64,000 nucleotides of DNA. It comes from Xanthocytophaga agilis. Its GTDB lineage: Bacteria > Bacteroidota > Bacteroidia > Cytophagales > 172606-1. The notes beneath the pieces were generated by a model that was not told the DNA's origin, searched no databases, and was given only the letters and a program-made list of their open reading frames with translations. Position numbers and translations under genes: made by a program. The stretch spans positions 744,001 to 808,000 of the forward strand of contig NZ_JASJOU010000002.1 in NCBI RefSeq assembly GCF_030068605.1, in the 5' to 3' direction. Shown piece after piece: positions 15,982 through 59,016 of the stretch. Numbering within the stretch: the first letter of the stretch is position 1; the number at the start of each line of letters is the position of its first letter.

Positions 15982-16597
15982 CTTTATGTTATAGATAAAG
16001 TATTTACTTTGATTATCAATTCCATAAAACATAGCCATCCATAAGGTCTTTATGTAAGTAATATAGGTTAAACTCTATAAGCACTGCGAGTTCTCGCATT
16101 TGGCGCACTACTTGCTCCATTTCTTAGACATTATGCTCTTATACTATTCAGTCTTCTTTAAGTGCAAATTTCAGGGTTACATAGATAGTTTTTTGTTCTC
16201 ACTTCTTTGATATTTTTTAGATGTTTTTTGAATACACTTTCTTTATTTCTGCTTTATTCATGCATAGTAATGAAATAAAAATTACTTAATTCCAAGTTTC
16301 AAAAATCATTCTTCCTTACTCAAAAATCATCGACAGTTTTCCTGCATTCATCACCTAAAACCCTTTCAATAGTCGATTAGACCTTGTATTTCTTCAAATT
16401 ATAGAGTTACACTCTACATGTGCTTCGTATATATAGATAAAAATGTTACGTCGATAGCGTATTAAAACCAAATGTAAATTAAAGTATCAAAAAGAGTTTT
16501 CTTTGTATTTCTTACATCCGTTATGTTTTCAGCTATCTTGTACCACTCACATTAGATTATATCTCTTTTTTTGCGTATTCAGTAATTGTATAGCATT
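15982..16597. other. 616-base A+T-rich intergenic region
   Basis: No convincing ORF, RNA gene or consensus promoter was found here. The one notable structure is a perfect inverted repeat, TGCGAGTTCTCGCA at 16085-16098, not followed by a T tract. The region presumably carries the 5' control region of the large surface-protein gene at 16598. Confidence 0.5.
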
Positions 16598-19198
16598 ATG
16601 CCTTATTCTCCAACTAGTATCCTCAAAATCAATACAGTATTAATTATACTATTATTAGCAAGCAGTTGGGTTGCCAAGGGACAAAGCTGTACGAGTGGTT
16701 GTACAATCACAATTAATGGAAGTAATTCTGCTACCTCAAATGGGGATATAATTCTAAATTCAGGAACTTTATGTATTACTGCTTCCACTTCTCGTAATAT
16801 ATATATTACAGGTAATAATACAACCATTTGTATAGCTTCTGGGGTTACGATCAGTTCTAATACTATCTATTTTGGCAATAACATAAATAACCCAATCATA
16901 AATAACTATGGCACACTTGCCAATAGTTCTACATTAAATTTTGGTAGTGGAGTAAGGTTATTAGTATTTTTTAATTACAATACAGGTACAATCAATGCTA
17001 CTCTAGCTAATCCAACCACAGGCACTTTTCCAGCAAATTCCGGAATCAGCAACACAGGTGTTTGGAACAGCCCAATAAACTTAACTATTCCAAGTGGAGG
17101 TATCGCTGTCACGAATAATAATACGTGGACAGGAGCTTTCAATACACCAATTGTCACAGGGAGTACGATTACAAATAATAATATGTGGAGTGGTGGACTT
17201 ATTGGTGGAGTAACAGGAGGAACAATTACGAATAATGGTACTTGGTCAGGATCGATAGGCGATATTAGTGGGGGAACAATTACCAACAATAGCGGAAAAA
17301 CCTGGAATGGTACCATCAGTGGCAATAATTCAGGAGGAGCTATTACAAACAATGGTACTTGGAATGGAGCTATTTCTGGTCAGATATCAGGTACAGCCTC
17401 TATTACCAATAATGGTACATGGAGTAATTGGAACACAATTAGTGGAGCTATATCAGGAGGTAGTATTACGAATAATGGTACTTGGAATGTCCCAATGACT
17501 GGTGCTATCAGTGGAGGAACTATTACAAACAATAGCGGAAAGACCTGGACTGGTAGTATTAGTGGAGATATATCAGGAGGAAATATTACAAATAATGGTA
17601 CTTGGGCCAATACTATTACGGGTGGTATTAGTGGAGGTACTATTACGAATAGCAGTGGAGCGACATGGAGTGGTAATCTTGATACTAATCCTATTACAGG
17701 TGGAGCTATAATCAATAATGGTACATGGACAGGGACAATGAGTAAACCACGTTCAGGAGGTGCTCTCACTAACAATAATATCTGGAATGGCATTACTAAT
17801 GGAGATATATCGGGCAACGCCTCTATTACAAATAATGGAACATGGAACGGAGCTTACAATACATCAATAAATGGTTCGGGTGTAGTAGTTAACAATAACG
17901 GGACATGGTCTTCTACTGCCAGAATTGATAACTTCAGTGGAGGAACCTTTAATAATAATAATGGAGCGACATTTCAACCCAATCAAAACTTTATACTATC
18001 AGGTTCAGCTATCTTCAATAATAATAGTGGTAGTACATTCAGGCCTTCATCTCTCCAAATAGATGGAACCAGTACAATCAATAATTACAGTTCAATCACC
18101 AATACTCCTGTTACAGTAAATAGTGGAACATTTAATAATACAAGTTCAGGTACCTTCACAGGAACTCTCAACAGCAATGGCGGTACTTACAATAATGCAG
18201 GCACTACCACTGTAACAAATAATATTGATATATCAGGGGCTATTAACTCTACAGCTGGAGGTACACTTACGTTTAATGGCAATGTCACTGCAAATGGCCC
18301 CTTAACAGCAACAGGAAGTAAAGTAACTATTAACGGAAACTTCACAAATAATAATACCATAAGTCTTACAAATGCAGAGCTTAATGTAACAGGTAACTAC
18401 ACTAATCAAGGAACATTAAATCTCTCTGGCTCATTAGTAAAAGTAAGTGGTAATTTTAGCAATTCCGCCACTGTCAGAAATACAAATCCTGTCACCTGTT
18501 CTAAAGTAGCACCATCAGGCAATGCGACAAACACAGGTACATTTGGGACTAGTAACAGTGCAACTGTTGACATCTGCCGTGGGGGAGCGAGTTCCTTTAA
18601 CTCTAATAGTGGTACCGTTAATGCTACTGTATGTACATGTTCTGTCAATCCATTGCCTGTAACTTTCATTAGTTTTTCAGGGACAGTAGTCAATGGTACT
18701 GTAGTATTAACATGGTCAACAGTTTCAGAAGAAAATAATAAGTCCTTTGTCATTGAACGTTCATCAGATGGCAAAACATTTGAAGCGATTGCAGAAGTAG
18801 CAGGAAACGGTACTACTAACCAGATATCAGCATACGAATTAGTAGACTCGAATCCTTTAAATGGCCAGAATTATTATAGAATCAAACAGGTCGATTATGA
18901 TAATACTGAGTCTTACTATAGTAAAGTGGTATCAGTATCAATTCAATCAGTTGTCCAACAACTTGTACTGGCTCCGAATCCTGTCAATTCAGATAAGGTT
19001 ACTTTACTCCTATCGGACAATTCAGATAAACTTACTGTTACAATTATTGATATGAAGGGAGCAATTCTTTCAGTGCAAAAATATACTGATCCCCAATCTG
19101 AAAACGAAGTAGATATTCAGAAGCTGGTCAAAGGGGTATATCTAGTACAGGTTCAGACAGGAACCACAGTCAAAACGCTAAGACTTGTTAAACTCTAA
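16598..19198 (+). CDS. Repetitive T9SS-secreted surface protein
   Basis: This 866-residue protein has a signal peptide (to about residue 32, ending WVAKGQ). A long Asn/Thr/Gly/Ser-rich body follows in which variants of ITNNGTWSG and SGGTITNN recur (about 165-445), then more irregular Asn-rich beta repeats to about residue 670. A domain with FVIERSSDGKTFEAIAEV and NYYRIKQVDYD (about 700-780) resembles the segment often preceding sorting domains. The C-terminus (about 790-866, with LAPNPVN, VTIIDMKGAIL and KGVYLVQVQTG) is a type A T9SS sorting domain. The protein should be secreted by the type IX system and attached to the surface. The repeats suggest a beta-solenoid stalk or adhesin; no enzyme domain is seen. 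The start at 16598 was chosen over a TTG four codons upstream. Confidence 0.88.
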   Translation: MPYSPTSILKINTVLIILLLASSWVAKGQSCTSGCTITINGSNSATSNGDIILNSGTLCITASTSRNIYITGNNTTICIASGVTISSNTIYFGNNINNPIINNYGTLANSSTLNFGSGVRLLVFFNYNTGTINATLANPTTGTFPANSGISNTGVWNSPINLTIPSGGIAVTNNNTWTGAFNTPIVTGSTITNNNMWSGGLIGGVTGGTITNNGTWSGSIGDISGGTITNNSGKTWNGTISGNNSGGAITNNGTWNGAISGQISGTASITNNGTWSNWNTISGAISGGSITNNGTWNVPMTGAISGGTITNNSGKTWTGSISGDISGGNITNNGTWANTITGGISGGTITNSSGATWSGNLDTNPITGGAIINNGTWTGTMSKPRSGGALTNNNIWNGITNGDISGNASITNNGTWNGAYNTSINGSGVVVNNNGTWSSTARIDNFSGGTFNNNNGATFQPNQNFILSGSAIFNNNSGSTFRPSSLQIDGTSTINNYSSITNTPVTVNSGTFNNTSSGTFTGTLNSNGGTYNNAGTTTVTNNIDISGAINSTAGGTLTFNGNVTANGPLTATGSKVTINGNFTNNNTISLTNAELNVTGNYTNQGTLNLSGSLVKVSGNFSNSATVRNTNPVTCSKVAPSGNATNTGTFGTSNSATVDICRGGASSFNSNSGTVNATVCTCSVNPLPVTFISFSGTVVNGTVVLTWSTVSEENNKSFVIERSSDGKTFEAIAEVAGNGTTNQISAYELVDSNPLNGQNYYRIKQVDYDNTESYYSKVVSVSIQSVVQQLVLAPNPVNSDKVTLLLSDNSDKLTVTIIDMKGAILSVQKYTDPQSENEVDIQKLVKGVYLVQVQTGTTVKTLRLVKL
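17100..17930 (+). repeat. Degenerate tandem coding repeats in the surface protein gene
   Basis: At least ten imperfect units, each containing a version of ATTACNAATAATGGTACTTGG (encoding ITNNGTW) alternating with SGG or ISGG units, occur at spacings of roughly 50-110 bases. Both DNA and protein copies have diverged, so this is an old expansion. Opposite-strand ORFs here are by-products of the repeat. Confidence 0.8.
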
Positions 19199-19898: not shown

Positions 19899-19906
19899 TA
19901 TCTTTG
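19899..19906 (+). promoter_or_regulatory. Putative -7 element for the ECF sigma gene
   Basis: TATCTTTG fits TAnnTTTG. Start codons in frame follow at 19916 and 19925, so the leader would be only about 4-14 bases. No TTG lies at a normal -33 distance (nearest is 26 bases upstream). Confidence 0.45.
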
Positions 19907-19924
19907 CTCCTCTTGATGAGGTGT

Positions 19925-20470
19925 ATGAGCAATGTTGAAAACGAAACAATAATCTGGTCTCAACTACGAAAAGCAGATCCGGAAGCATTCCAGATCCTGT
20001 ATGACAAATACTGGACTCCGCTTTTCTTATATGCCTACCGTACCCTCAACAACAAACAAGAAGCTCAGGATATTCTTCAGCTTTTCTTTAGCGACCTCTG
20101 GGAAAAATCAACCACTCTGCCTTTTGTAACAGACTTAAGATACTACCTATTTAGAGGGCTGAAAAATCGTATTCTGAATTCCATTCGGGATAAACAGATT
20201 GAAGAAAAACAGATTGCAGCATTTTATGAAGTTCTGGATGAAACAGATACTATTCCAGACGATCCCATTAATGATATCACATTTAAAGACAAAATCCTTC
20301 CCTTACTGGAAATACTCCCTCCCCGTATGCAGCAAGTACTGCAAATGCACTATCTGCAAGGACTATCTGTAACTGATATCGCAGACGAACTAGGTTCTGC
20401 TCCTCAAACTATCCGAAATCAATTGAATATCGCATTAAAACGTCTTCGAGAAAAACTGGTTGTCAGATAA
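19925..20470 (+). CDS. ECF RNA polymerase sigma factor (FecI-like)
   Basis: This 181-residue sigma-70 family protein has only regions 2 and 4. Region 2 is visible as DPEAFQILYDKYW and EAQDILQLFFSDLWEK, region 4 as LPPRMQQVLQMHYLQGLSVTDIADELG followed by a helix-turn-helix in TIRNQLNIALKRLREKL. It is of the Bacteroidota FecI-like type that works with a FecR anti-sigma factor and a signalling SusC. The next two genes are exactly those. The start may be 19916 (MRCMSNVE) or 19925 (MSNVENET); the latter is chosen on family appearance. It probably switches on the susCD-phospholipase operon downstream. Confidence 0.92.
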   Translation: MSNVENETIIWSQLRKADPEAFQILYDKYWTPLFLYAYRTLNNKQEAQDILQLFFSDLWEKSTTLPFVTDLRYYLFRGLKNRILNSIRDKQIEEKQIAAFYEVLDETDTIPDDPINDITFKDKILPLLEILPPRMQQVLQMHYLQGLSVTDIADELGSAPQTIRNQLNIALKRLREKLVVR

Positions 20471-20615
20471 AGCTCCTATACTTGTTATTGTCTCCACATT
20501 ACACAACGTATACATTATGTCTGTATTTCCTGTTTTATCAAATTGTTAATTCACGTTTTTGTAATGGTTACAACTCAGGAATGCTGTGTCTTTGAAGTAA
20601 AATAAGTTTTCATTC

Positions 20616-21572
20616 GTGGACGATAAAGTATTTAAAGAGTTAGTAAAAAAATTTCAGGCAGGTGAATGTACAGAGAAAGAGATTGAACTTCTGCATCACT
20701 GGTTGGATATACTGGAAGCAGATTCACGTCTGACAGATCCAGATACAGAAGAATTGGAGTTGCTTAAGGAGCAATCACTAGCAAACATTCTGCCACATAC
20801 CAGACAGGAGATACCAACCCACAAATTGTGGCCTGTTGTTGGAAAGATAGCAGCTGCATTCATTCTTGTTTCTTCCGTTGCACTATACCTTTTTCAACAA
20901 TATGGCTCTGCAAAAACGGTAATAGTAGCAACAGGCAATCAGCAGATAAAAAAGATCCAGTTGCCAGATGGTTCACAGATCTGGTTATATGCAGGAACAA
21001 CACTAGAATATAATGAACCCTTTGTACAAAAAGAGCGAGTAGTCAGATTAAAAGGACAAGCATTTTTTGATGTTAAACGGGATACACTTCATCCATTTGT
21101 AGTGAATACATTTGGTATTATTACCACCGTATTAGGAACTTCTTTTAACATCACTGCTTATCCTCAAAATACATCTGTACAGGTAGCAGTTGTGAGTGGA
21201 AAAGTAAAAGTGGGTAATACCCACAAAGCATTCGCGTTGCTCACACCCTCAGACCGTATCATCGTACAAAAAAGTAATCATACCAGCCAATTGGATCATA
21301 TTGATCCGTTAGCGATTAAGCGATGGACATCCGGGGAAATATTCTTACGGAATGCCTCTCTGAAAGAAGTACTTCAAACATTGGAACAATATTATGGCGT
21401 AAACTTTAAAACCCACTTTAATACCAATGAAGGCAACTTTACATTAAAACTAAATCAGAAACTATCTCTTGATCAAGCATTAGATATTATCCAACTAGTC
21501 AGTTATCAACCAAAAATCCGGTTTGAGATAAAAGAAAAAACCATTCACGTATACCGGACCAAAACCAAATAG
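20616..21572 (+). CDS. FecR-type anti-sigma factor
   Basis: The 318-residue protein has a cytoplasmic N-terminal segment (about 1-70) that would bind the sigma factor, one membrane helix (about 72-90, VVGKIAAAFILVSSVALYL), a periplasmic FecR domain (about 100-200: KKIQLPDGSQIWLYAGTTLEY, VVRLKGQAFFDVKRD, FNITAYP), and a C-terminal DUF4974 domain (about 245-315, LKEVLQTLEQYYGVNF). In such systems the STN domain of the partner SusC contacts the periplasmic part and releases the sigma factor when substrate is present. The start is a GTG at 20616, matching MDDKVFKELVKKF. The gene lies 145 bases after the sigma gene and 126 bases before susC. Confidence 0.93.
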   Translation: MDDKVFKELVKKFQAGECTEKEIELLHHWLDILEADSRLTDPDTEELELLKEQSLANILPHTRQEIPTHKLWPVVGKIAAAFILVSSVALYLFQQYGSAKTVIVATGNQQIKKIQLPDGSQIWLYAGTTLEYNEPFVQKERVVRLKGQAFFDVKRDTLHPFVVNTFGIITTVLGTSFNITAYPQNTSVQVAVVSGKVKVGNTHKAFALLTPSDRIIVQKSNHTSQLDHIDPLAIKRWTSGEIFLRNASLKEVLQTLEQYYGVNFKTHFNTNEGNFTLKLNQKLSLDQALDIIQLVSYQPKIRFEIKEKTIHVYRTKTK

Positions 21573-21698
21573 CTTAACAAACATACTATTTAAGAAAAAA
21601 GGCACTAATAGGCGTCCTGGGAATCTTTTTGCCTTCAAAAACCAATATCAAACACACATAACTCATTTAAAATCAATTACTTACCTTTTCAAACTATC

Positions 21699-24600
21699 AT
21701 GAAACACCCTTTCCGAATCCGACAATGCCTGGCTTGTCTATCTTTTATTCTCACTATCTGCTACATACAGATCTCTTCAGCAACAACACCCAAAATGGTG
21801 ATGTTACAGAAGAAGATCAAAAAGATGGTCATACCAGACGGTACTCTTGCCCATGCACTGGATATTATTGAAGATAAGGCAGCAGTTAACCTGGCATATG
21901 ATGAAAATGCTATTCTTTCTTATCAGGTACAAAAGGCAACTTTCAACGAAACTACAGTAGGAGATGTGCTAACGAATATGCTTCAGAAATTTCCTCAACT
22001 ACGATTTGAAGAAAAGTATAACACCATTGTTATTTTTCCAAATACCAGTTACGCAGAAACCAGTACAAAAGATATCACCGTAACAGGAACAGTAAAAGAC
22101 GATCAGAATCAACCATTAGCAGGAGTAACAGTTATTGTTAAAGGAACTAACATCGGTTCTATCACAGATGCAGATGGAAAGTATACTATTTCAGTACCCT
22201 CTCAGGATGCAACTCTTGTCTTTAGTTTTATTGGTTATGTATCGGAAGAGGTAGCTGTTGGTACTCGTACCTCTGTAGACGTAACTCTAGTGAATGATGT
22301 AAAATCATTGATGGAAGTAGTTGTAGTTGGATATGGTACACAGAAAAAAGCTGAGGTTACAGGTGCAGTATCTTCCATCTCAACAAAAGAAATAAGCAGC
22401 CGCAATTACAACTCCGCAGCAGAAGTATTACAAGGAACTGTTCCTGGTGTAACCATTATGAATAATGGTGGTGACCCAACCTCTCAACCTTCTATCAACA
22501 TCCGTGGTATTGGGTCTATTAATGGTGAAAGTCCACTTATCATTGTTGATGGGTCAATATTTATGGGTCCTTTCAATTCTATCAATCCTAATGATATAGA
22601 ATCATTGAGTGTGTTAAAAGATGCATCCGCCGCTATCTATGGGGCTCGTGCTTCTGGAGGTGTAATACTGATTACAACAAAAAAAGGACTCTCTAACAAA
22701 TACAATGTAAGTATAAACTATCAGCAGGGATTTCAACAGGTTGGAAAAACACTAAGTGCATTGAATTCAGCTGAACGTGCAGACATTGTAAATCAGATTC
22801 GTAGCAATGAAGGTCTGGCAGCAGATCCCGCCTTTACTACCTTTCCAGATGCCCGCATTACTAAAACCAACTGGATGAATGAAATTTTCCAAACAGGAAA
22901 GATTTACAATGTAAATGCATCTATCAGTGGAGGAAACGAAAAAAGTACATTTTTTCTGTCAGGTGGTTATAGAAAAAATGAAGGTATACTCTTAAATACT
23001 TTCTCCGATCGTTTCACAGCTCGTTTAAATTCCTCCCATCAGCTTCATAAAAAGGTAAAAATAGGTGAGAACCTTTCCTACTCTCTTACAAACGGACAAG
23101 GAGCCAATACATTCAGTTCTTACACAGGGCCAATAATAGGTGCTATTTTCTATCCTACTAATGCAACGGTATACAGAGAAGATGGTTCTGGACTATTTGG
23201 TGGTGTACCTGAACAATATCCGGCATCTTATGGTGATGTTATAAATCCTGTAGCCTACCTTAAGCGTCTTGACAGCAAGAATCCAATATCCAATCTCCTA
23301 ATCAACCCTTATCTGGAATGGGATATTATATCAGGTTTAAAGTTTCGTAGTAACTGGGCATACACTCGTATCAATGATGATTCCAAACAATTCAATAGTA
23401 AAGTTCTGGAAACTGGTAAAATCTTTGATTTTAACGAATTAATTCAGAATCATAGACTTTTTCAAAGTCTACTGAATGAGCAAACTATACAGTGGGATCA
23501 TACATTCGGTGAAAAGCATAAACTAAATGCATTGCTGGGACATACATATGAACATTGGAAAAACGAATCCTATTCAGTAACTGGAACAGGATTTGACAAT
23601 GAAGCACCTTCACAACGTTATCTAACCAATGCCAAAACTATCTCTGCTTATAGCTCAGATATATATGAAGTAAATCAGGAATCCTATTTAGGTCGACTTA
23701 ATTACTCCTTTGCTGATAAATATCTGTTAACAGGAATCTTACGTCGTGATGGTACATCCAAACTGGCAGGTAATAAGCGTTGGAAATGGTATCCATCTGT
23801 TTCAGCAGGCTGGGTTATCTCACAGGAGCCCTTTATGCAAAACATCTCTTTGATCAGCAATCTAAAATTACGGGCAAGTTGGGGGATGATTGGTAATCTG
23901 GGACAATTAGGACCTTATGCGTTCAGCTTGCCTCTGGATAAAACACAGACTATGATGGGTCAAAGTCCCAGCTTACAGTTAGGCTTTGCAGAAAATGAAT
24001 TGTCCAACTCCAATTTGGTATGGGAAAGTTCTGAGCAGAAGAATATTGGTTTAGACGTTGGTCTATTAAATGGTCAGTTTACAGCTACTGTAGATCTTTT
24101 TGTTAAGAATAATAAGAACATGCTTCTTCGTCGTACACTTCCAGGAACAGCAGGTGCACCTAAAGGCCAGATTATCAATGCTGGTAATATGGAAAACCGA
24201 GGAGTGGAGTTTGGACTTACCTATCATAAATCCAAAGGAGACTTTCAATTTGATATTACTGCAAATGCAGCGCGTGTAAAAAATACCTTGAAGGCCTTGT
24301 ACGATGATGTTAAATCCCAACCAATGGGTTCAACAGTACGACAGTTGCCGCTGTCAAACATTGCACGAATCGGAGATCCATTTAATGCATTCTATGGTTA
24401 TCGGACAGAAGGATTATTTAAGTCAGATGATGAAGCAGCTAATTATGTAAACAATAAAGGTGAAAGATTACTACCTAAAGCCCAAGGTGGAGATTTGAAA
24501 TTTGTTGATACAAATAATGATGGTCTTATTAACGATAATGATCGTGTAATTCTGGGTAGCATCTTCCCAAAATGGACATACAGTTTGAATGGTAACTTCA

Positions 24601-25049
24601 GATATAAGAATTTTGACTTAAATCTTTTCTTCCAGGGTGTTAGTGGTAACAAGGTACTGAATGCAGTAAAATATACGGGACTAAATGCTACTTTCTTTAG
24701 CTATAACTTTCTGTCTGATATAAAAAATGCATGGACTCCTGAAAATACAAATACCAATATTCCCCGGTTAAGTGTGGTTGATCCTAACAATAACTTTGGA
24801 AGAGTATCTGATTTTTATGTTGAAGATGCCTCATACGTGCGTCTAAAAAGTTTGACACTGGGTTATACAATTCCTTCTACATGGCTGAAAGGCGTACGCC
24901 CTCGCATTTATTTCACAGGACAAAATCTGTTTACAATCACAAACTATTCAGGAATGGATCCGGAAGTGGGGATGAATAATAACGGTATAGACCTTGGGTT
25001 ATATCCTGTATCGCGTGTGTATATGTTTGGCATTGATGTAAACTTCTAA
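21699..25049 (+). CDS. SusC-family TonB-dependent receptor with STN signalling domain
   Basis: This is a 1116-residue outer-membrane transporter. The order is signal peptide (about 1-28), STN/secretin-TonB N-terminal domain (about 40-115, with FNETTVGDVLTNML), carboxypeptidase-D-regulatory-like domain (about 125-205, VTGTVKDDQNQPLAGVTV), the SusC phrase EVVVVGYGTQKK (TonB box region), plug (with IRGIGSINGESPLIIVDG and LKDASAAIYGARASGG), then the barrel ending VYMFGIDVNF. The STN domain marks it as a signalling receptor working with the FecR and sigma genes just upstream. The downstream SusD forms the lid. The cargo is inferred from the following phospholipase and phosphatase genes to be a phosphorylated lipid head group or glycan, but nothing in SusC itself shows that. 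Confidence 0.94.
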   Translation: MKHPFRIRQCLACLSFILTICYIQISSATTPKMVMLQKKIKKMVIPDGTLAHALDIIEDKAAVNLAYDENAILSYQVQKATFNETTVGDVLTNMLQKFPQLRFEEKYNTIVIFPNTSYAETSTKDITVTGTVKDDQNQPLAGVTVIVKGTNIGSITDADGKYTISVPSQDATLVFSFIGYVSEEVAVGTRTSVDVTLVNDVKSLMEVVVVGYGTQKKAEVTGAVSSISTKEISSRNYNSAAEVLQGTVPGVTIMNNGGDPTSQPSINIRGIGSINGESPLIIVDGSIFMGPFNSINPNDIESLSVLKDASAAIYGARASGGVILITTKKGLSNKYNVSINYQQGFQQVGKTLSALNSAERADIVNQIRSNEGLAADPAFTTFPDARITKTNWMNEIFQTGKIYNVNASISGGNEKSTFFLSGGYRKNEGILLNTFSDRFTARLNSSHQLHKKVKIGENLSYSLTNGQGANTFSSYTGPIIGAIFYPTNATVYREDGSGLFGGVPEQYPASYGDVINPVAYLKRLDSKNPISNLLINPYLEWDIISGLKFRSNWAYTRINDDSKQFNSKVLETGKIFDFNELIQNHRLFQSLLNEQTIQWDHTFGEKHKLNALLGHTYEHWKNESYSVTGTGFDNEAPSQRYLTNAKTISAYSSDIYEVNQESYLGRLNYSFADKYLLTGILRRDGTSKLAGNKRWKWYPSVSAGWVISQEPFMQNISLISNLKLRASWGMIGNLGQLGPYAFSLPLDKTQTMMGQSPSLQLGFAENELSNSNLVWESSEQKNIGLDVGLLNGQFTATVDLFVKNNKNMLLRRTLPGTAGAPKGQIINAGNMENRGVEFGLTYHKSKGDFQFDITANAARVKNTLKALYDDVKSQPMGSTVRQLPLSNIARIGDPFNAFYGYRTEGLFKSDDEAANYVNNKGERLLPKAQGGDLKFVDTNNDGLINDNDRVILGSIFPKWTYSLNGNFRYKNFDLNLFFQGVSGNKVLNAVKYTGLNATFFSYNFLSDIKNAWTPENTNTNIPRLSVVDPNNNFGRVSDFYVEDASYVRLKSLTLGYTIPSTWLKGVRPRIYFTGQNLFTITNYSGMDPEVGMNNNGIDLGLYPVSRVYMFGIDVNF

Positions 25050-25099
25050 TCTGACAGTACTTACTTAATAAAGCACTTGTATTTCCATTGATATATCCT

Positions 25100-26623
25100 A
25101 TGAATAATATAGTAAAAAATATAACCTTACTGACATCTTTACTAATAGCTACTTCTTGTAGCAACATGTTGGATGTTAACCCCCAGGGAGCACCAACTTC
25201 AGGCTCTTTCTGGAAAACCGAAGCAGATGCCATTGCAGGTGTTAATGCTGTATATGATCTGTATTCAGATGATGATATGTATGGTCGTGGTTTTTTCTGG
25301 CTGAACAACGCCAGTGATGATATCGGCACAAAACCTCGTGCCAATGCCGAAAAAATTAAAAACTTTTTAGTTGATGGTAGCGAATCCGATACTAAATCTA
25401 TCTGGGCAAAGCACTATCAGGTAATGAAACGTAGCAATGATGTAATCCGCAATGTGCCCAATATTACAATGACAAATGAGGCTTTAAAGAATCGCATACT
25501 TGGAGAAGCATATTTTAACCATGCCGTTATGCATCTTGAACTGGCCTACAGATATGGCGATGATCGGGCAGGTATTCCAATTCAGGATAGAGAGAACCCT
25601 GAAAATATCTATGTGACACGTACTAAAAATGTTGGAGAGAACTATGCATATATAGTAGCCGATCTGGCTAAAGCAGCAGAATTACTTCCTTATTTTTCAG
25701 AGTATGTCCCAGCCGATTATGGCAGAGCACATAAAACAGCTGCATGGGCTTATATGGCACGTACCTACCTATATGCTAAAGATTGGGCTAATGCAGAGAA
25801 ATATGCGGACATGGTTATCAATAGTGGTAAACATGGCTTACTCACTGAATTTGAAGATGTATTTAAGATTGCTAATAACTGGTCAAAGGAATACATCTGG
25901 TCTGTATCTTCCAGTGCAAGCAATACATCCAAAGGATGCATTTTTCCAGGAGTGTTATTAGAAGATAAAGGCTGGGGACTCTACAATGGCTGGGGGAATT
26001 TCTATCCTACCAAAGAGTTATTTGACACCTATCAGGAAGGTGATGAACGTCTGCCTGCTACTATTCTGAAAACAGGAGATAAATTTATGTTCTTTGGTGA
26101 AGAACGCACATATAATGTAGGCAGCTTTACTGTAGGTTCCAGTAACCGTACTGGTTACCAATTCAAAAAGTATATGGAGCCTTTTGGATATGCTAATCCA
26201 GTTGGAACCTATGTCAATCCCAATGGAGATAAACCTTCTACAACATTAAATGTACCTCTGCTAAGATATGCGGATGTCATTCTGATGAAAGCAGAGGCAC
26301 GTCTTATGCAAAATAAAGATGCTGATACAGAGATTAACATGATTCGCGAACGTGCTGGTCTTACTCCCCTAAGCGGAGCAACAATGACAGATCTGAAACG
26401 TGAAAGACGTTGCGAATTTGCAGGAGAATGGACAGATCGCCACTGGGATCTTGTACGTTGGGGAGATGCAGAAGCTACCTATGCGAAACCTCTTCACCAT
26501 GCAGATGGACATGTGATTTATGAAGGCCGCACATTTAAACCTACTGTACACCATGTATGGCCAATTCCTCCGGATGAGATTGCAGTAAGCAAAGGTGCGC
26601 TTTGGCAGAATGAAGGTTATTAA
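25100..26623 (+). CDS. SusD/RagB-family surface lipoprotein
   Basis: The 507-residue protein has a lipoprotein signal ending IATSC (lipidated Cys near residue 17) and the SusD phrases LDVNPQGAPTSGSFWKTE, ADAIAGVNAVYDLY, GEAYFNHAVMHLELAYRYG and the C-terminal RERAGLTPLSG, KRERRCEFAGEWTDRHWDLVRWG. It is the ligand-binding lid over the SusC barrel. The start at 25100 is preferred over a TTG four codons upstream because it opens a standard lipoprotein signal. It follows susC after 50 bases and is followed by a hairpin before the phospholipase gene. Confidence 0.94.
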   Translation: MNNIVKNITLLTSLLIATSCSNMLDVNPQGAPTSGSFWKTEADAIAGVNAVYDLYSDDDMYGRGFFWLNNASDDIGTKPRANAEKIKNFLVDGSESDTKSIWAKHYQVMKRSNDVIRNVPNITMTNEALKNRILGEAYFNHAVMHLELAYRYGDDRAGIPIQDRENPENIYVTRTKNVGENYAYIVADLAKAAELLPYFSEYVPADYGRAHKTAAWAYMARTYLYAKDWANAEKYADMVINSGKHGLLTEFEDVFKIANNWSKEYIWSVSSSASNTSKGCIFPGVLLEDKGWGLYNGWGNFYPTKELFDTYQEGDERLPATILKTGDKFMFFGEERTYNVGSFTVGSSNRTGYQFKKYMEPFGYANPVGTYVNPNGDKPSTTLNVPLLRYADVILMKAEARLMQNKDADTEINMIRERAGLTPLSGATMTDLKRERRCEFAGEWTDRHWDLVRWGDAEATYAKPLHHADGHVIYEGRTFKPTVHHVWPIPPDEIAVSKGALWQNEGY

Positions 26624-26633
26624 ATCCTCTTTT

Positions 26634-26664
26634 AGAATAGGTAAAGAGCTACTTTACCTATTCT
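26634..26664 (+). terminator. Hairpin after susD (possible partial terminator)
   Basis: GAATAGGTAAAG (26635-26646) pairs with CTTTACCTATTC (26652-26663), loop of five. The downstream sequence is only moderately T-rich, so read-through into the phospholipase gene is plausible. Confidence 0.65.
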
Positions 26665-26722
26665 GATTCTTGTTTATATACTTTTCTTTTATCCACTTTT
26701 ATTCATCTTTTCACTTATTCGC

Positions 26723-27670
26723 ATGAAAAAGCACCTTTTTTCTCTGTCAGTAAGCATTTTTACAGTTGCATTTTTATTGGTTGGCTGTCAATCTGAAAGT
26801 CCGGTTCAACCAAAGCCATCTCATTCTGGCAAATCGGCTAAGGTTGCCTATTCACTTAACAACTGGATGAGCTTAGTAAGCAGCAGTCTTACACTTTCAC
26901 AGCTTTCTATTCCAGGTACACACGACTCTGGTGCACTTTATGAACCTGTTTCAGGAACAGCCAAGTGTCAGAATCTTACAATAAGCAACCAGCTTACAGC
27001 AGGTATACGTTTCCTGGATGTCCGTTGCAGACACATTGATAACGCATTTGCTATCCACCATGGCTCGATCTATCAAAACATGAACTTTGATGATGTTCTC
27101 AATGCCTGCTGGAGCTTCTTAGCGAGTAACCCTACCGAGACTATAATTATGAGTATTAAAGAAGAGTATAACTCTTCGAATGTTAGCCGCACTTTTGAAC
27201 AAACATTTGATTCCTATATACAAAAAAATCCAAGTCAGTGGTACCTAGGATCATCTGTTCCAGCCTTAGGAACTGTTCGTGGAAAGAATGTTCTTCTCAG
27301 ACGTTTCAGTGCTACTAGTACTCCAAAAGGGATTGATGCTACCAATTGGGCAGACAATACAACCTTTACATCAGGTATACTGAATGTACAAGATTATTAT
27401 AATGTGAGCAGTGCTGACCAAAAATGGACTTCTATTACCAATCAGTTTAATGCAGCTTTAGCAGGAAGCAGCAATACCTTGTATCTGAATTATACTAGTG
27501 GTTACAAGGCTCTTATTTTTGGAATTCCTAGTATTACAACTGTATCCAACTCTGTTAACCCAAAAATCACCACTTATTTTACGACTAACACAAGTGGCAG
27601 ATACGGAATTATCCCAATGGACTTTGCAGATTCTGGCCGCAGTTCCTTAATCATTGCAACCAATTTTTAA
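26723..27670 (+). CDS. Phosphatidylinositol-specific phospholipase C, lipoprotein
   Basis: This 315-residue protein has a lipoprotein signal with lipobox LLVGC (Cys22) and a PI-PLC X domain. Catalytic residues line up with the bacterial enzymes: His67-Asp68 in SIPGTHDSG, Asp99 and Arg101 in FLDVR, and the second catalytic His at 112/113 in AIHHGS. Bacterial PI-PLC cleaves phosphatidylinositol, and often GPI anchors, to diacylglycerol and a cyclic inositol phosphate without calcium. Here it would be anchored at the envelope, probably exposed on the surface. It comes 99 bases after SusD and before a PhoX-type phosphatase, suggesting that products are imported and dephosphorylated. The C-terminal half (about 165-315) is less conserved but ends in GRYGIIPMDFAD, also family-like. 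Confidence 0.92.
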   Translation: MKKHLFSLSVSIFTVAFLLVGCQSESPVQPKPSHSGKSAKVAYSLNNWMSLVSSSLTLSQLSIPGTHDSGALYEPVSGTAKCQNLTISNQLTAGIRFLDVRCRHIDNAFAIHHGSIYQNMNFDDVLNACWSFLASNPTETIIMSIKEEYNSSNVSRTFEQTFDSYIQKNPSQWYLGSSVPALGTVRGKNVLLRRFSATSTPKGIDATNWADNTTFTSGILNVQDYYNVSSADQKWTSITNQFNAALAGSSNTLYLNYTSGYKALIFGIPSITTVSNSVNPKITTYFTTNTSGRYGIIPMDFADSGRSSLIIATNF

Positions 27671-27693
27671 TCCTATTACAAATACATTTATAC

Positions 27694-27727
27694 AAAATGC
27701 CTCTTGTCATGTCGACAGAGGCATTTT
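27694..27727 (+). terminator. Terminator after the phospholipase gene
   Basis: AAAATGCCTCT (27694-27704) pairs with AGAGGCATTTT (27717-27727), loop of twelve, with a short T run at its end. The PhoX gene follows at 27789. Confidence 0.75.
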
Positions 27728-27788
27728 ATATCCTGGATTAGTCAGTCTTTGTCATTTTAATTCTTTTATCCACAACCAAACAAATTTC

Positions 27789-29393
27789 ATGAGTACTTCA
27801 TCCAGAAGAGAGTTTCTTCAGTTTTTGGGCCGTGCAGCTATTACTACCTATGGATTATCTATTCTACCAACAGATAATCTTCTTGCAGCCTCTTTACAAT
27901 CGAATGCCTTACCGTTTACTCCTATCGAACCTTCAGATGCAGATAAGCTTATACTGGCAGAAGGATTCCAATACCATGTGGTTGCCAAATGGGGAGATAA
28001 ACTCAACAAGACAGAAAAGTATGGTACTCACAATGACTTTGTAACCTTTATCTCATCTATTAAACAAGCTAAAAATGAAGGAATCTTATGGGTCAATCAT
28101 GAGTATACAAATCCATTGTTTATTAACGGCAAACCCTATACAAAGGGAGAAACCAGAACAAAAGCAGAAGTGCTGGCAGAGATGGAGAGTGTAGGTGGTA
28201 GTATTGTCAAGATCCGAAAAAATCCAAAAGACTCTCAATGGAAAATAGTGCAGGGGGATCCTGTAAACAAACGCATTACAGCCTTAACTGAAATTCCTTT
28301 TGCCTGGCATGAGCCTATTGCAGGGTCAAAAACAGCCATTGGGACACTAGCCAATTGTGCAGGCGGTCAGACTCCATGGGGTAGTGCATTATCTTGTGAA
28401 GAAAACTACGATACATTCTGGGGAGAACTGGATCTTTCAAAACCCGATAAGCCCAAAATACGAATGGGTGACTATGGATGGGATACCGTGTTTCATTATA
28501 CACCTGAACATTATGGATGGGTAGTAGAAATCAATCCACTCACCGGACAAGCCAAAAAACTGGTAGCTCTTGGCAGATTTGCTCATGAAGCAGCAACTGT
28601 ATGGCAACTACCTGATAAACGTTGTGTAGTATACACAGGAGATGATAAAGAAGATGAGCACCTTTACAAATTCATCGCCTCTGAATCTAACTCGCTCGAG
28701 AAAGGAAAACTCTACGTGGCCAATACAGAACGTGGGCAGTGGATTTCACTGGATATTCAGGACCAGCCTATTTTACAGCAGCATTTTGCCAGTCAGACAG
28801 AAGTACTGATACGCTGCAGAGAAGCCGCCAAACTTGTTGGAGCAACTCCCCTAAACAGACCTGAAGATATTGAGATAGACCCTATCACTAAGGATATTTT
28901 TGTTTGCCTTACCAATAACGCTCGCAAAGGAGATGTCTATGGCTCTATTATGCGAATTACCGAGAAAGATGGAAAAGACGGACTCCGTTTTGAGTCGAAA
29001 GTATTTATGGCTGGCGGACCTGATACTGGATTTGCCTGTCCGGATAATATGGTTTTTGACAACAAAGGCAATCTCTGGTTTACATCTGATATGTATAACA
29101 TGAACAAAGGAGATTACATACCTTTTAAAAATAATGGATTCTTCTTTGTCCCTATGTCTGGAGAAAATGCAGGAAAAGTATATCAGGTAGCCTCTGCCCC
29201 TATGGATGCAGAATTCACAGGGCCTTGTTTCTCCCCTGATTATGAAACGTTATTCTTATGTGTCCAACACCCAGGCGAAAACTCAAAAAGTCTGAAAGAG
29301 TTGACAAGTCATTTTCCGGATGGAGGAGATAGCATTCCAAAATCCTGTCTGGTTGCTATTACAGGTCAGGCACTCCAGACTATTATACAATAA
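27789..29393 (+). CDS. PhoX-type phosphatase (DUF839)
   Basis: This 534-residue protein starts MSTSSRREFLQFLGRAA, a Tat-type signal (SRREFLQ), so it is probably exported folded with metals bound. PhoX enzymes are calcium- and iron-dependent alkaline phosphatases acting on phosphomonoesters. Family motifs are visible: SCEENYDTFWGE with Cys203-Glu204-Glu205, GRFAHEAATV, YTGDDKEDEHLYKF, NRPEDIEIDP, ACPDNMVFDNKGNLW, GPCFSPDYETLFLCVQHPGE. The frame is open 45 codons upstream into the phospholipase terminator, but the Tat signal fixes the start at 27789. Its place after the PI-PLC suggests it removes phosphate from the released inositol phosphates or similar esters. A terminator follows. Confidence 0.92.
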   Translation: MSTSSRREFLQFLGRAAITTYGLSILPTDNLLAASLQSNALPFTPIEPSDADKLILAEGFQYHVVAKWGDKLNKTEKYGTHNDFVTFISSIKQAKNEGILWVNHEYTNPLFINGKPYTKGETRTKAEVLAEMESVGGSIVKIRKNPKDSQWKIVQGDPVNKRITALTEIPFAWHEPIAGSKTAIGTLANCAGGQTPWGSALSCEENYDTFWGELDLSKPDKPKIRMGDYGWDTVFHYTPEHYGWVVEINPLTGQAKKLVALGRFAHEAATVWQLPDKRCVVYTGDDKEDEHLYKFIASESNSLEKGKLYVANTERGQWISLDIQDQPILQQHFASQTEVLIRCREAAKLVGATPLNRPEDIEIDPITKDIFVCLTNNARKGDVYGSIMRITEKDGKDGLRFESKVFMAGGPDTGFACPDNMVFDNKGNLWFTSDMYNMNKGDYIPFKNNGFFFVPMSGENAGKVYQVASAPMDAEFTGPCFSPDYETLFLCVQHPGENSKSLKELTSHFPDGGDSIPKSCLVAITGQALQTIIQ

Positions 29394-29409
29394 CTTTCCT
29401 TTACCCAAT

Positions 29410-29446
29410 AAAAAGAGCCAGGCAATTCCGTCCTGCTCTTTTTATT
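29410..29446. terminator. Bidirectional terminator between phoX-like and M15 peptidase genes
   Basis: AAAAAGAGC(C)AGG (29410-29422) pairs with CCTGCTCTTTTT (29432-29443) with one bulged base. A and T tracts at both ends allow use on both strands of the convergent pair. Confidence 0.82.
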
Positions 29447-42714: not shown

Positions 42715-44550
42715 ATGCAAATTCCGAACATCAGCAAGGCTTTGCTTTGCACCTTAGTACTTTTTATCCCAAGTCTGCTTTATTCTCAAACCAGTAAAGT
42801 ATTAACCAATCATGTAGGATACGAAGAAAACAAACCTAAAAGAGCCGTATTACTCGCTGATACCCAGCTGTCTCCAGAAAGCTTTCAATTAATAAACCAG
42901 ACAAATGGCAGTGTAGTGTATTCTGGTAAGCCAGTATTCAGCGGACCTGTTGACAAATGGAAAAACTGGATTTTCTGGACAATAGACTTTAGTGACTATT
43001 CAACCAATGGGACCTATCTGTTACAGGTATCTTTGCCTGGTAAGTCAGTCATTTCCTATCCATTCAAGATTGGTAAGAATATCCTTGAGCAAGCCACTAT
43101 ATCAGATGTGATCTACTATTTTAAAGGACAACGAGCCTCAGGCCTGTTGGATAAGGCTGATCATCATCTGGCACTGTCAGGTGCCACTGAACGAACCATT
43201 GATGCACATGGTGGCTGGTATGATGCCAGTGGTGATTATGGTAAGCATCTATCTCATCTGTCATTCTCTTCCTATTTCAATCCTCAGCAGATTTCACTCA
43301 CTGTATGGAGTCTACTCAAAACATATGAACTGCTGGTTCAGCGCACAGGAACAGATTTCCGTCAATACACTAGGAGATTACTGGATGAAGCTATGTATGG
43401 CGCTGACTATCTTACCCGTATGCATCCACAGAAAGGATCTTTCTACAGATCTGTATCTGCTCCCGGTCCAGGTAAATTGCCTCAGGATAGAGTGATTCGT
43501 GCAGAAGAGAGTAACTATCGCATCAAACAAAATAAAGACCAATCATTTACTACCAGTGTAGCCGGAAGAGACTGGCGCACCTACCAAACCAGCTATCGGT
43601 CAGGGAGTGGACTTTCCATTGCAGCGTTAGCTATTGCAGCCCGATACGATACATCAGGCGACTACACAAATAAAGATTACCTGAAAGCAGCCGAAGAAGC
43701 ATTTGCATTTCTGGAAACAGATAATGTGCTTATGACTAATGATGGCAAAGAAAATATAGTGGATGACTATACAGCCTTATGTGCAGCTACAGAACTTTAC
43801 AAGACTACTAAAAAGGATGTTTATAAAAAAGCGGCAGAAAAGAGAGCCCAACAATTAATCAACAGACTCAGTCGCTGGAAAAATTACCAGGATTACTGGC
43901 GTGCCGATGCCAAAGATCGTCCGTTCTTTCATCCTTCTGATGCAGGGTTACCTATTGCTAGTCTGATATACTATTCTCAGATAGCAACTCCAGCCGTGCA
44001 AACTACGATCAAACAAGCAATCAAACGTTCTCTCACATTCGAACTGGCCATTACCCGAGAAGTTACGAATCCGTTTGGTTACAGTCGTCAATTAGTACAG
44101 GATACGGCGGGCAACAGGCGTAGTACTTTTTTCTTTCCACATGGTAGTGAAGCCTCCCCGTGGTGGCAAGGCGAAAACGCCCGATTGGGATCTATAGCAG
44201 CCGCAGCCCGCTTAGCGATTCCACTTTTTACAGAAGACAAGCCATTTCAAAATACGTTGCAACAGTTTGCAGTAGATCAGTTGAACTGGATACTAGGTCT
44301 GAATCCCTATGATGCCTGTATGCTTCAAGGAACAGGTCACAATAATCCTGCTTACGGATTTTTCGGTACGTTTGAGTATACCAATGCCCCTGGTGGCATC
44401 GTAAATGGAATTACCTCTGGCCTGGAAGATGAACATGATATTGAGTTTAACCTTTCTTATGCGAAAACAGGTAAGGACTATGACTGGCGTTGGGCAGAAC
44501 AATGGTTACCTCATGCGGCCTGGTATCTGCTGGCAGTATCTATCCCTTAA
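42715..44550 (+). CDS. GH9 family endoglucanase
   Basis: The 611-residue secreted enzyme has a signal peptide (about 1-24, ending LLYSQ), an N-terminal CelD_N Ig-like domain (about 28-120: KVLTNHVGYEENKPKRAVL, GTYLLQVSLPG) and a GH9 (alpha/alpha)6 domain (about 130-611). Catalytic base Asp170/Asp174 are in GGWYDASGDYGKH; the proton donor is probably Glu573 in LEDEHDIEFN. GH9 enzymes cut beta-1,4-glucan chains with inversion. It is not fused to a carbohydrate-binding or T9SS domain, so it is likely periplasmic. It precedes a ThuA-like gene by 26 bases and is near the xylan locus. Confidence 0.93.
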   Translation: MQIPNISKALLCTLVLFIPSLLYSQTSKVLTNHVGYEENKPKRAVLLADTQLSPESFQLINQTNGSVVYSGKPVFSGPVDKWKNWIFWTIDFSDYSTNGTYLLQVSLPGKSVISYPFKIGKNILEQATISDVIYYFKGQRASGLLDKADHHLALSGATERTIDAHGGWYDASGDYGKHLSHLSFSSYFNPQQISLTVWSLLKTYELLVQRTGTDFRQYTRRLLDEAMYGADYLTRMHPQKGSFYRSVSAPGPGKLPQDRVIRAEESNYRIKQNKDQSFTTSVAGRDWRTYQTSYRSGSGLSIAALAIAARYDTSGDYTNKDYLKAAEEAFAFLETDNVLMTNDGKENIVDDYTALCAATELYKTTKKDVYKKAAEKRAQQLINRLSRWKNYQDYWRADAKDRPFFHPSDAGLPIASLIYYSQIATPAVQTTIKQAIKRSLTFELAITREVTNPFGYSRQLVQDTAGNRRSTFFFPHGSEASPWWQGENARLGSIAAAARLAIPLFTEDKPFQNTLQQFAVDQLNWILGLNPYDACMLQGTGHNNPAYGFFGTFEYTNAPGGIVNGITSGLEDEHDIEFNLSYAKTGKDYDWRWAEQWLPHAAWYLLAVSIP

Positions 44551-52456: not shown

Positions 52457-52524
52457 GTTATCGAAATTATTGAGAAATTTAAATTCGATTTTATGTAGTG
52501 ACACCCATCTATCCTCATTTATTT

Positions 52525-55500: not shown

Positions 55501-55611
55501 GGAGCTCAAGGAGTTGTAGCCAATTCCAATATTCCAAGCCGTCAGTTGACTGTAGGAGCGAATACGCCTCCGTCCCGTTGGTTTATGATTGGCTTAAATA
55601 TCAAATACTAA
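52525..55611 (+). CDS. SusC-family TonB-dependent transporter of the glucuronoxylan locus
   Basis: The 1028-residue outer-membrane transporter has a signal peptide (about 1-38, ending QANAQA), a carboxypeptidase-D-regulatory-like domain (about 40-115, ITGKVTDDKGGELPGVSVLI), the EVVVVGYGTQKKSDVTGA phrase, a plug (IRVRGERSLGGSNDPLLVVDG, LKDASATAIYGSRGANG) and a barrel that ends FMIGLNIKY. Unlike the SusC at 21699 it has no STN domain, so it does not signal to a FecR system; control is left to the LacI regulator. It should import xylo-oligosaccharides, probably with glucuronyl substituents. The start at 52525 is chosen over a GTG nine codons upstream. Confidence 0.95.
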   Translation: MKQSILPEIRILPIGFGWKYVLIAACTLLISITQANAQAKSITGKVTDDKGGELPGVSVLIKGTNNGTVTNSEGRYTLSVSNPDAVLVFSFIGYISEETSLNGRSTIDVQLLPDITSLTEVVVVGYGTQKKSDVTGAIVSVNEKTLREVPAANLSQALQGRAAGLQIQPTGTRPGSVGQIRVRGERSLGGSNDPLLVVDGIPYDGSINDLNPSDIKSLEILKDASATAIYGSRGANGVIIITTQRGQAGKPVVSYNGYQGVTTVARKYHLFNAEEFQKMRDVSGYGVAAGAPYLPVELESISMGRSTDWQDLLYKNGKVMNHELSVGGGTENTQYSFGGGYYKETAVLPGQSFQRYSLRMTIDQKIGKRVKIGFNTMNTFGITDGESVGAMYSILSTSPLVPAYDANGAIINQPSYPREDQYSPLLLNNKDSWAERRKRIRTFNSLYGEVEILEGLKYRLNIGLDYRQDQYGSYAGKFTPMNNGTTSTATVDNGSAYNYTIENLLTYDKTIAEKHRFGVTGLYSIQQSESNNTRISATDLVADYIQYYNLGLSNSTAIVSSDNQGYSKRVILSYMGRINYSYDDRYLLTVTGRLDGSSVLAAGNKWHAYPAVSAGWNITNESFMKDIRFLSTLKLRAGLGQTSNQAINPFQTLGSLSQNKYNFGSTNAYGYYTSTLPNPDLGWEYTKTVNIGLDYGFLNGRITGSFEVYRQRTEDILLNTSLPPTSGVPGAYLKNVGKTENKGIEFSVSTQNIIKENGFNWSTDLNIFFNRNKILALNSGVTKDLGNLWFVGQPINVIFDYEKIGIWQTNEADAATKFSQKPGQIKVKDQNNDGKITPEDDKVILGNFQPKFQGGFTNRFSYKGFDLSVVTFASIGGKLISAIHQPQSYLNMLQGRRNGIKVDYWTEQNPTNAYPKPDAAIGDNPLYGSTLGYFDATFVKIRSINLGYNLPQNWLKKISASSIRIYATVNNVATLFSPYIKAGGVDPEATGTGAQGVVANSNIPSRQLTVGANTPPSRWFMIGLNIKY

Positions 55612-55634
55612 AAAAGATAAGATTTATATATTCT

Positions 55635-57341: not shown

Positions 57342-57351
57342 CCATAATAAC

Positions 57352-57385
57352 AAAAACTGAGGTCCACAAAACCTCAGTTTTTGTA
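57352..57385 (+). terminator. Terminator after susD
   Basis: AAAAACTGAGGT (57352-57363) pairs with ACCTCAGTTTTT (57371-57382), loop CCACAAA, with a short T tail. It should reduce transcription into the hydrolase genes, giving more SusCD than enzyme. Confidence 0.85.
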
Positions 57386-57419
57386 TATTAACAGATTATC
57401 AATCTATTATCTGCATTTT

Positions 57420-57800: not shown

Positions 57801-57857
57801 TGCATATGGTAGAAAACACTTGAAATTATATTGTTATCAATAAAACCCCCAACCTAT

Positions 57858-58958: not shown

Positions 58959-59016
58959 TTCTCTGGCTATATACGCTTTGTTACCTGATTTACTATTACT
59001 TATTTATTGCTATCCA

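What the first reader, a model, noticed from the sequence alone, without database searches (positions are those of the whole stretch)
19899..29393. SusCD locus dedicated to phosphoinositide or GPI-type substrates, with its own sigma/anti-sigma switch
Seen: consecutive plus-strand genes for ECF sigma, FecR, STN-bearing SusC, SusD, a lipoprotein PI-PLC with all catalytic residues (His67, Asp99, Arg101, His112/113), and a Tat-exported PhoX-type phosphatase. No glycoside hydrolase is present. Known: STN-SusC/FecR/FecI systems are substrate-induced; PI-PLC releases inositol phosphate or GPI glycans; PhoX removes phosphate. Inference: this is a polysaccharide-utilisation-like locus that harvests phosphate and/or inositol glycan from eukaryotic membranes (phosphatidylinositol or GPI anchors). 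I know of no described utilisation locus with this combination.
Basis: partly seen in the sequence, partly recalled or inferred. Interest (0 to 1): 0.75.

Follow-up and report, generated by a model that had tools for sequence, protein, structure and literature searches.

The report
Phosphorus-scavenging SusCD locus with PI-PLC
This bacterial genome carries an outer-membrane nutrient-uptake gene set whose transporter belongs to a group found beside phosphate-releasing enzymes and, in several lineages, beside a phospholipid-cutting enzyme, so it most likely harvests phosphorus from membrane lipids rather than sugar from polysaccharides.

Summary
Six co-directional genes (ECF sigma, FecR, SusC, SusD, lipoprotein PI-PLC, Tat-type PhoX) lie at 19925-29393, without a glycoside hydrolase. 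'Dedicated to phosphoinositide/GPI' is only partly supported. The window's SusD belongs to a supported 44-row clade; 44 of 44 sit within 6.5 kb of a phosphatase, against 0 of 10 other SusDs tested alike. Its sister group, in what is very probably Flavobacterium (73-76% SusD identity), has the FecR-SusC-SusD-[GDPD/PhoA] order of F. johnsoniae PUSII, a published phosphate-starvation-induced 'phosphate utilisation system' (PMC8115612). PI-PLC joins this SusCD clade in six lineages (Xanthocytophaga, another Cytophagales family, Flavobacterium, Hymenobacter, Pedobacter, Chryseobacterium). Around the Chryseobacterium GDPD/PhoA gene it is present in 34 of 45 scorable loci (not a random sample), never without SusCD. 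But PI-PLC is an accessory: 23 of 25 genomes found through SusD lack it beside SusCD. PhoX is a partner only in Xanthocytophaga among loci seen, behind a terminator-like hairpin. Best reading: a PUS-type phosphorus-scavenging locus in which PI-PLC supplies phosphorylated headgroups. A new variant of a known kind; F. johnsoniae PusCD2 sequences, expression and activity were not tested.

The parts
19925..20470 (+). ECF sigma factor (FecI-like); ORF opens at TTG 19904, ATG at 19925
   Evidence: Pfam PF04542/PF08281, TIGR02985 just under cut-off
20616..21572 (+). FecR anti-sigma factor
   Evidence: PF04773 1.3e-16, PF16344 6.7e-12
21699..25049 (+). SusC-type TonB-dependent transporter; N-terminus aligns with a relative's STN/FecR_C region
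   Evidence: TIGR04056 4.9e-265; no Pfam STN match in the window protein; alignment
25100..26623 (+). SusD-type lipoprotein, member of the phosphatase-linked SusD clade
   Evidence: PF07980/PF14322; tree; 73-74% identical to Flavobacterium-type SusD by tblastn
26632..26666 (+). hairpin between susD and the PI-PLC gene (terminator or processing signal), stem conserved in the sister species
26723..27670 (+). lipoprotein PI-PLC; Arg101 suggests the metal-independent type (recalled)
   Evidence: PF00388 1.6e-14; profile vs solved PI-PLCs 5e-51; residues invariant in four sequences
27690..27731 (+). A/T-flanked hairpin between the PI-PLC gene and phoX, terminator-like
   Evidence: sequence; fold of the gap -20.8 kcal/mol, gap nearly identical in the sister species
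27789..29393 (+). PhoX-type phosphatase with Tat signal (RREFL)
   Evidence: PF05787 2.5e-102; matches solved PhoX 3zwu 7.4e-58
29407..29446 (+). hairpin with T tract after phoX, likely end of the region

Best explanation
This is a phosphate-utilisation-system (PUS) locus of the PUSII kind, not a polysaccharide locus. Inferred mechanism: under phosphate limitation and/or when ligand occupies SusC, the ECF sigma/FecR pair switches on SusCD. The lipoprotein PI-PLC, probably on the cell surface, cuts phosphatidylinositol (possibly GPI) from eukaryotic debris and releases inositol cyclic phosphate or a related phosphorylated headgroup. SusD captures it and SusC imports it with TonB energy. Exported phosphatases then free the phosphate: PhoX here; a GDPD/PhoA fusion, PhoA, PhoD or a metallophosphoesterase in relatives. 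Shown: gene content, conserved PI-PLC residues, clade membership of SusD, phosphatase neighbours, recurrent PI-PLC linkage. Inferred: substrate, location, regulation, order of steps.
For: 44 of 44 clade SusD rows have a phosphatase within 6.5 kb, against 0 of 10 other SusDs (clade support 100/99). Of these, 13 of 13 loci fetched on SusD alone (out of 25 genomes found that way) carry PhoA-type genes. Five loci of the sister group (L125, L145-L148) read ECF-FecR-SusC-SusD-GDPD/PhoA; L125's FecR, SusC and SusD have the Pfam domains tabulated for PUSII. PUSII's PusCD2 is reported as induced under Pi depletion only. That the sister group is Flavobacterium rests on G544's SprA matching the solved gliding-motility SprA end to end (that this is F. 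johnsoniae's is recalled). PI-PLC sits with clade SusCD in six lineages: G001/window, G053, 27 of the 80 best PI-PLC loci (X. flavus 1, Pedobacter 2, Hymenobacter 4, Chryseobacterium 20), two Flavobacterium. Beside the Chryseobacterium GDPD/PhoA gene: SusCD+PI-PLC 34, SusCD without PI-PLC 7, neither 4, PI-PLC without SusCD 0, 1 of 46 unscorable at a contig end. G053 has an unrelated metallophosphoesterase next to PI-PLC in place of PhoX. No CAZyme among the six genes, while an ordinary xylan-type SusCD locus lies in the same window.
Against: 53 of the 80 best PI-PLC loci have no clade SusD in the fetched flanks (up to 10 kb), among them all Chitinophaga and most Pedobacter loci of that list. 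Of 25 genomes found through SusD, only 2 have a PI-PLC beside SusCD; 17 of the 19 in g102 do not. None of 10 other genomes with a PhoX relative shows SusCD or PI-PLC near it, on stretches of 5-17.5 kb. Hairpins flank the PI-PLC gene. In Chryseobacterium PI-PLC is on the opposite strand to SusCD. The F. johnsoniae PusCD2 sequences were not compared, and the passages seen list no sigma gene for PUSII. The GDPD_2 match in L125 is under cut-off. F. johnsoniae PhoA1 had no essential role in phosphomonoester use (PMC8812569, passage).
Confidence: 0.65

Rival explanations
1. General phosphodiester PUS; PI-PLC and PhoX are loosely attached Pho-regulon genes. SusCD imports glycerophosphodiesters or other headgroups and does not depend on PI-PLC products.
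For: Near relatives of SusCD (73-76% SusD) occur without PI-PLC but with GDPD/PhoA; hairpins on both sides of PI-PLC; PhoX relatives elsewhere are unlinked.
Against: PI-PLC linked to this clade in six lineages, including the place after GDPD/PhoA in two Flavobacterium, and no PI-PLC without SusCD beside the Chryseobacterium GDPD/PhoA gene.
Confidence: 0.25
2. GPI-anchor or phosphoglycan harvesting: PI-PLC frees GPI glycans that SusCD imports. (Overlaps with the best explanation; not exclusive.)
For: Three cousin loci (SusD 38-42% identical) combine SusCD with GH92 and PhoA; L130 also has GH125 and an endonuclease/exonuclease/phosphatase-family gene, and L130 and L131 a GH63/MGH1-like gene, a set suited to phosphorylated alpha-mannosides such as GPI or phosphomannan (inference). 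Bacterial PI-PLCs can release GPI proteins (recalled).
Against: No mannosidase or hexosaminidase among the window's six genes. In the core clade loci read here the neighbours identified were phosphatases, not these hydrolases (genes without a match were not all scanned).
Confidence: 0.12
3. PI-PLC as a membrane-attack or virulence factor, with the SusCD neighbour coincidental.
For: 53 of the 80 best PI-PLC loci have no clade SusD in the fetched flanks. PI-PLC of a Chryseobacterium strain was listed as a predicted toxin by database annotation (PMC10921761, one passage).
Against: Repeated linkage to one SusCD clade and to phosphatases.
Confidence: 0.06

Closest known systems
Flavobacterium johnsoniae PUSII (Fjoh_3249 PhoA1 pf00245+pf13653, PusD2 Fjoh_3250, PusC2 Fjoh_3251, FecR Fjoh_3252), PMC8115612
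   Same: SusCD with FecR and a phosphatase, no CAZyme; a Flavobacterium-type relative with the same order carries a SusD 73-76% identical to the window's
   Different: Window has PI-PLC and PhoX and no GDPD/PhoA fusion; Pi induction untested; PusD2 sequence not compared
F. johnsoniae PUSI (PusCD1, ECF sigma Fjoh_4171, Fjoh_4172, Fjoh_4173), PMC8115612
   Same: SusCD with ECF sigma and phosphodiesterases, low-Pi induced; Fjoh_4172 is annotated there as a phosphoinositide phospholipase C
   Different: Fjoh_4172 is given Pfam pf00149 (metallophosphoesterase), not PI-PLC-X; no sequence comparison made
Secreted bacterial PI-PLC (solved entries such as 1gym and 4f2t)
   Same: Near full-length similarity and conserved residues
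   Different: Here a lipoprotein beside a nutrient transporter
Solved PhoX alkaline phosphatase (3zwu)
   Same: Near full-length similarity; Tat motif in the window protein
   Different: Beside SusCD/PI-PLC only in Xanthocytophaga among loci seen

Membership tests
Phosphate utilisation system (PUS) | SusCD pair beside phosphomono/diesterases instead of CAZymes | tested here: met
Phosphate utilisation system (PUS) | induced only by Pi depletion | not testable with these tools
   needs expression data for this species
PUSII | SusCD orthologous to PusCD2 | tested here: inconclusive
   sister to Flavobacterium-type loci with PUSII order and domains; Fjoh_3250/3251 sequences not compared
PUSII | PhoA with GDPD_2 (pf13653) domain in the locus | tested here: not met
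   PhoX instead; the only PhoA match in the genome lies on another contig
PUSII | FecR-like regulator in the locus | tested here: met
Polysaccharide utilisation locus (PUL) | linked glycoside hydrolase or lyase | tested here: not met
   none among the six genes or the 3 flanking genes scanned
PI-PLC (PF00388) | domain over curated cut-off and catalytic H/D/R/H | tested here: met
   catalytic role of the residues recalled
PI-PLC (PF00388) | hydrolysis of PI or GPI | not testable with these tools
   needs enzyme assay
PhoX (PF05787) | family match over cut-off and Tat export motif | tested here: met
   RREFL by eye
FecI/FecR/STN cell-surface signalling | ECF sigma and FecR | tested here: met
FecI/FecR/STN cell-surface signalling | STN domain on the transporter | tested here: inconclusive
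   no Pfam match; aligns with a relative's STN region

The most novel reading that the evidence does not exclude
A SusCD transporter clade that recognises phosphorylated inositol or mannosyl-inositol headgroups: core members take PI headgroups for phosphorus, cousins with GH92/PhoA (and GH125) take the glycan of GPI anchors or phosphomannans, and PI-PLC is the recurrent surface enzyme that frees the cargo. This would be a nutrient-uptake system dedicated to PI/GPI, a kind I found no description of in the searches made.
Probability: 0.15. Interest if true: 0.75.

Novelty: new variant of a known kind. Interest (0 to 1): 0.5.

Why it matters
PUS loci are known from Flavobacterium expression data, but which organic phosphorus compound each one takes was left open in the paper read. 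A PI-PLC partner that recurs in six lineages gives one PUS clade a concrete, testable substrate (phosphatidylinositol headgroups). It extends PUS-like loci to Cytophagales, Hymenobacter, Pedobacter and Chryseobacterium, and shows different phosphatase families around one conserved transporter.

Tried and rejected
Coincidental adjacency was tested and rejected for PI-PLC but not for PhoX, whose relatives elsewhere are unlinked. Genome co-occurrence of clade SusD and PI-PLC over 394 class genomes (7 and 13, 4 shared; Fisher p 2.4e-5) is weak support: three of the four PI-PLCs are only 34-40% identical, none of the four is beside SusCD, and the genomes are related. The Chryseobacterium test (p 0.002) also ignores relatedness and is not a random sample: of 111 matching genomes (22 of them at 38-42%), the 30 best were read with 1.5 kb flanks, so adjacency but not the wider slot was seen; 20 lower-ranked ones were picked by hand, of which 5 non-syntenic paralogues were dropped; L128, found through SusD, was added; L202 ends at a contig edge. 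In the 15 lower-ranked syntenic loci only 5 have PI-PLC, against 29 of the 30 best. As the sample starts from GDPD/PhoA, a PI-PLC at the place without that gene would be missed.

A scan for Bacteroidota -33/-7 promoters (consensus recalled) gave no strict match in the gaps. A count of invariant SusD residues (99 in 41 core rows, 10 Arg and 4 Lys) could not be interpreted without a structure. The PI-PLC tree largely follows genera and needs 5 linkage changes (starred branches force 2), so repeated recruitment or loss is likely but single origin is not excluded by much; several rows are long-branched. The SusD tree is midpoint-rooted and its outgroup rows are long. Structure prediction was not run. 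The 10 'other' SusDs all come from PI-PLC neighbourhoods and at least one lies at a locus edge. Searches scored only the best 3 candidates per genome.

Full report
WHERE AND WHAT. The window lies in a 9.77 Mb genome. The genus is most likely Xanthocytophaga: the same-genus genome G001 has a contig of the same length, with PI-PLC at the same coordinates, as X. flavus YF14B1. The genome has one PI-PLC-X match, two PhoX matches, one PhoA gene (two match rows) and 50 SusD_RagB match rows, at least one a fragment of another. Upstream lie a T9SS-sorted repeat protein and an exoribonuclease-like gene, downstream a M15 peptidase on the other strand; none is a CAZyme. A xylan-type locus (SusCD, GH10, GH115) at 52498-61884 in the same window gives the contrast.

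CONSERVATION. In G001 all genes are syntenic and 94-98% identical. In G053, of another family of the order, one strand carries ECF, FecR, SusC (44%), SusD (54%), PI-PLC (51%) and then a calcineurin-like metallophosphoesterase instead of PhoX. Among 59 relatives searched, 4 including the window's own had a PI-PLC relative. Among 395 class genomes, own included, 14 had one and 8 had a SusD at E 1e-80 or better.

THE CLADE. A scan of genome contigs with a PI-PLC alignment kept the best 80 of at least 542 relatives. In 27 of 80 a SusD scoring above 500 bits against the window's lies within 10 kb; other SusDs there score 28-130. Between SusD and PI-PLC lie a GDPD-like/PhoA fusion (Pedobacter, Chryseobacterium) or separate GDPD-like and PhoA genes (Hymenobacter), with an extra metallophosphoesterase (L070) or a PhoD (L059) in single cases. 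The Hymenobacter GDPD-like protein scanned has no Pfam match; the name rests on resemblance by eye. A maximum-likelihood SusD tree puts 44 rows in one branch (100/99), all beside a phosphatase; the 10 other SusDs have none within 6.5 kb. The window's closest relatives outside its genus are SusDs of genus g102 (73-76% identity; 9-row branch 100/100), closer than G053 of its own order. This suggests horizontal transfer of SusCD; FecR is only 29-38% identical and the sigma factor gave no tblastn match there.

LINK TO PUSII. Seventeen of 121 genomes of genus g102 have a 74-76% identical SusD and two more one at 48-49%. That g102 is Flavobacterium rests on SprA of G544 matching the solved SprA along its whole length (species of 6h3i recalled). 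The five 75% loci read (L125, L145-L148) go ECF-FecR-SusC-SusD-GDPD/PhoA. In L125 the FecR (PF04773, PF16344), SusC (PF00593, PF07715, PF13715, PF16344) and SusD (PF07980, PF14322) match the domains that Table 1 of PMC8115612 gives for PUSII; its PhoA has PF00245 over cut-off and GDPD_2 under it. Of that paper I saw passages and sections 16 and 19 whole. It reports two SusCD-like complexes, PusCD1 and PusCD2, as induced under Pi depletion only; the passages list FecR but no sigma gene for PUSII. Three of 19 SusD-positive g102 genomes have a PI-PLC relative: in two it directly follows the GDPD/PhoA gene (G499, G507), in the third it is distant (37%) and on another contig.

WITH AND WITHOUT. Of 20 lower-ranked loci fetched, 15 were syntenic: 5 with SusCD and PI-PLC, 6 with SusCD (one in fragments) and no PI-PLC, 4 with GDPD/PhoA only. 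L128 (G345) adds one with SusCD and no PI-PLC. PI-PLC was never there without SusCD.

LIMITS. PI-PLC is accessory: 2 of 25 genomes found through SusD have it beside SusCD, and many PI-PLCs stand elsewhere, including a 66% identical one in G395, whose clade SusCD is on another contig. PhoX is linked only in Xanthocytophaga: 10 other genomes with PhoX relatives show no SusCD or PI-PLC in the stretches fetched, some of them short. The hairpin before phoX and the near-identical gap in the sister species suggest that phoX has its own transcription start (inference).

COUSINS. Three SusDs at 38-42% identity (L129, L130, L131) lie in loci with GH92 and PhoA. L129's phosphatase is one protein with PhoA, metallophosphoesterase and PA14 domains (GDPD_2 under cut-off); L130 has GH125 and an EEP-family gene, L130 and L131 a GH63/MGH1-like gene. 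This suits phosphorylated alpha-mannosides and keeps a GPI or phosphomannan reading alive for the cousins (inference).

LITERATURE. Searches for PI-PLC with SusC and PUL (none), PhoX/SusD/phospholipase terms (four papers listed), PusCD terms, GPI with SusD (one beta-glucan paper, listing only), Chryseobacterium with PI-PLC, PI-PLC/TonB/phosphate terms (none) and GH92/GH125/phosphatase (none) gave no description of a PI-PLC-X gene in a SusCD locus in what I opened or saw listed. The nearest is the annotation of Fjoh_4172 (PUSI, pf00149) as a phosphoinositide phospholipase C in PMC8115612. PMC10921761 lists a Chryseobacterium PI-PLC as a predicted toxin (one passage). PMC8812569 was seen in passages. 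The library holds open-licence papers only.

VERDICT. It is a new variant of the known phosphate utilisation systems.

Noticed in passing
window 52498-61884: Ordinary SusCD locus with GH10 and GH115 (xylan type); a GH9 enzyme at 42715-44550.
   Followed up: partly
window 16586-19198: 870-aa repeat-rich protein with a T9SS C-terminal sorting domain.
   Followed up: no
L129, L130, L131: Loci with related SusCD, GH92 and PhoA (L130 also GH125 and an EEP-family gene; L129 a PhoA-metallophosphoesterase-PA14 fusion): a possible phospho-mannoside or GPI-glycan utilisation locus.
   Followed up: partly
L172 2996-9712: A PhoX relative lies beside a GH92 gene and a gene with a sub-threshold endonuclease/exonuclease/phosphatase match, without SusCD.
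   Followed up: partly
L209, L210, L227, L228: A second phosphatase-rich SusCD cluster in the Chryseobacterium-type genus (different SusCD, PhoA, GDPD/PhoA; a metallophosphoesterase by Pfam in L209 and by eye in L210 and L227).
   Followed up: partly
L225: SusC and SusD of the clade appear as fragments beside GDPD/PhoA, with no PI-PLC.
   Followed up: no
L031: A distant PI-PLC lies one gene away from an unrelated SusCD pair, on the opposite strand.
   Followed up: no
L085, L093: PI-PLC relatives at 62-63% identity in contigs labelled Akkermansiaceae and Oscillospiraceae MAGs; could be transfer or binning error.
   Followed up: no
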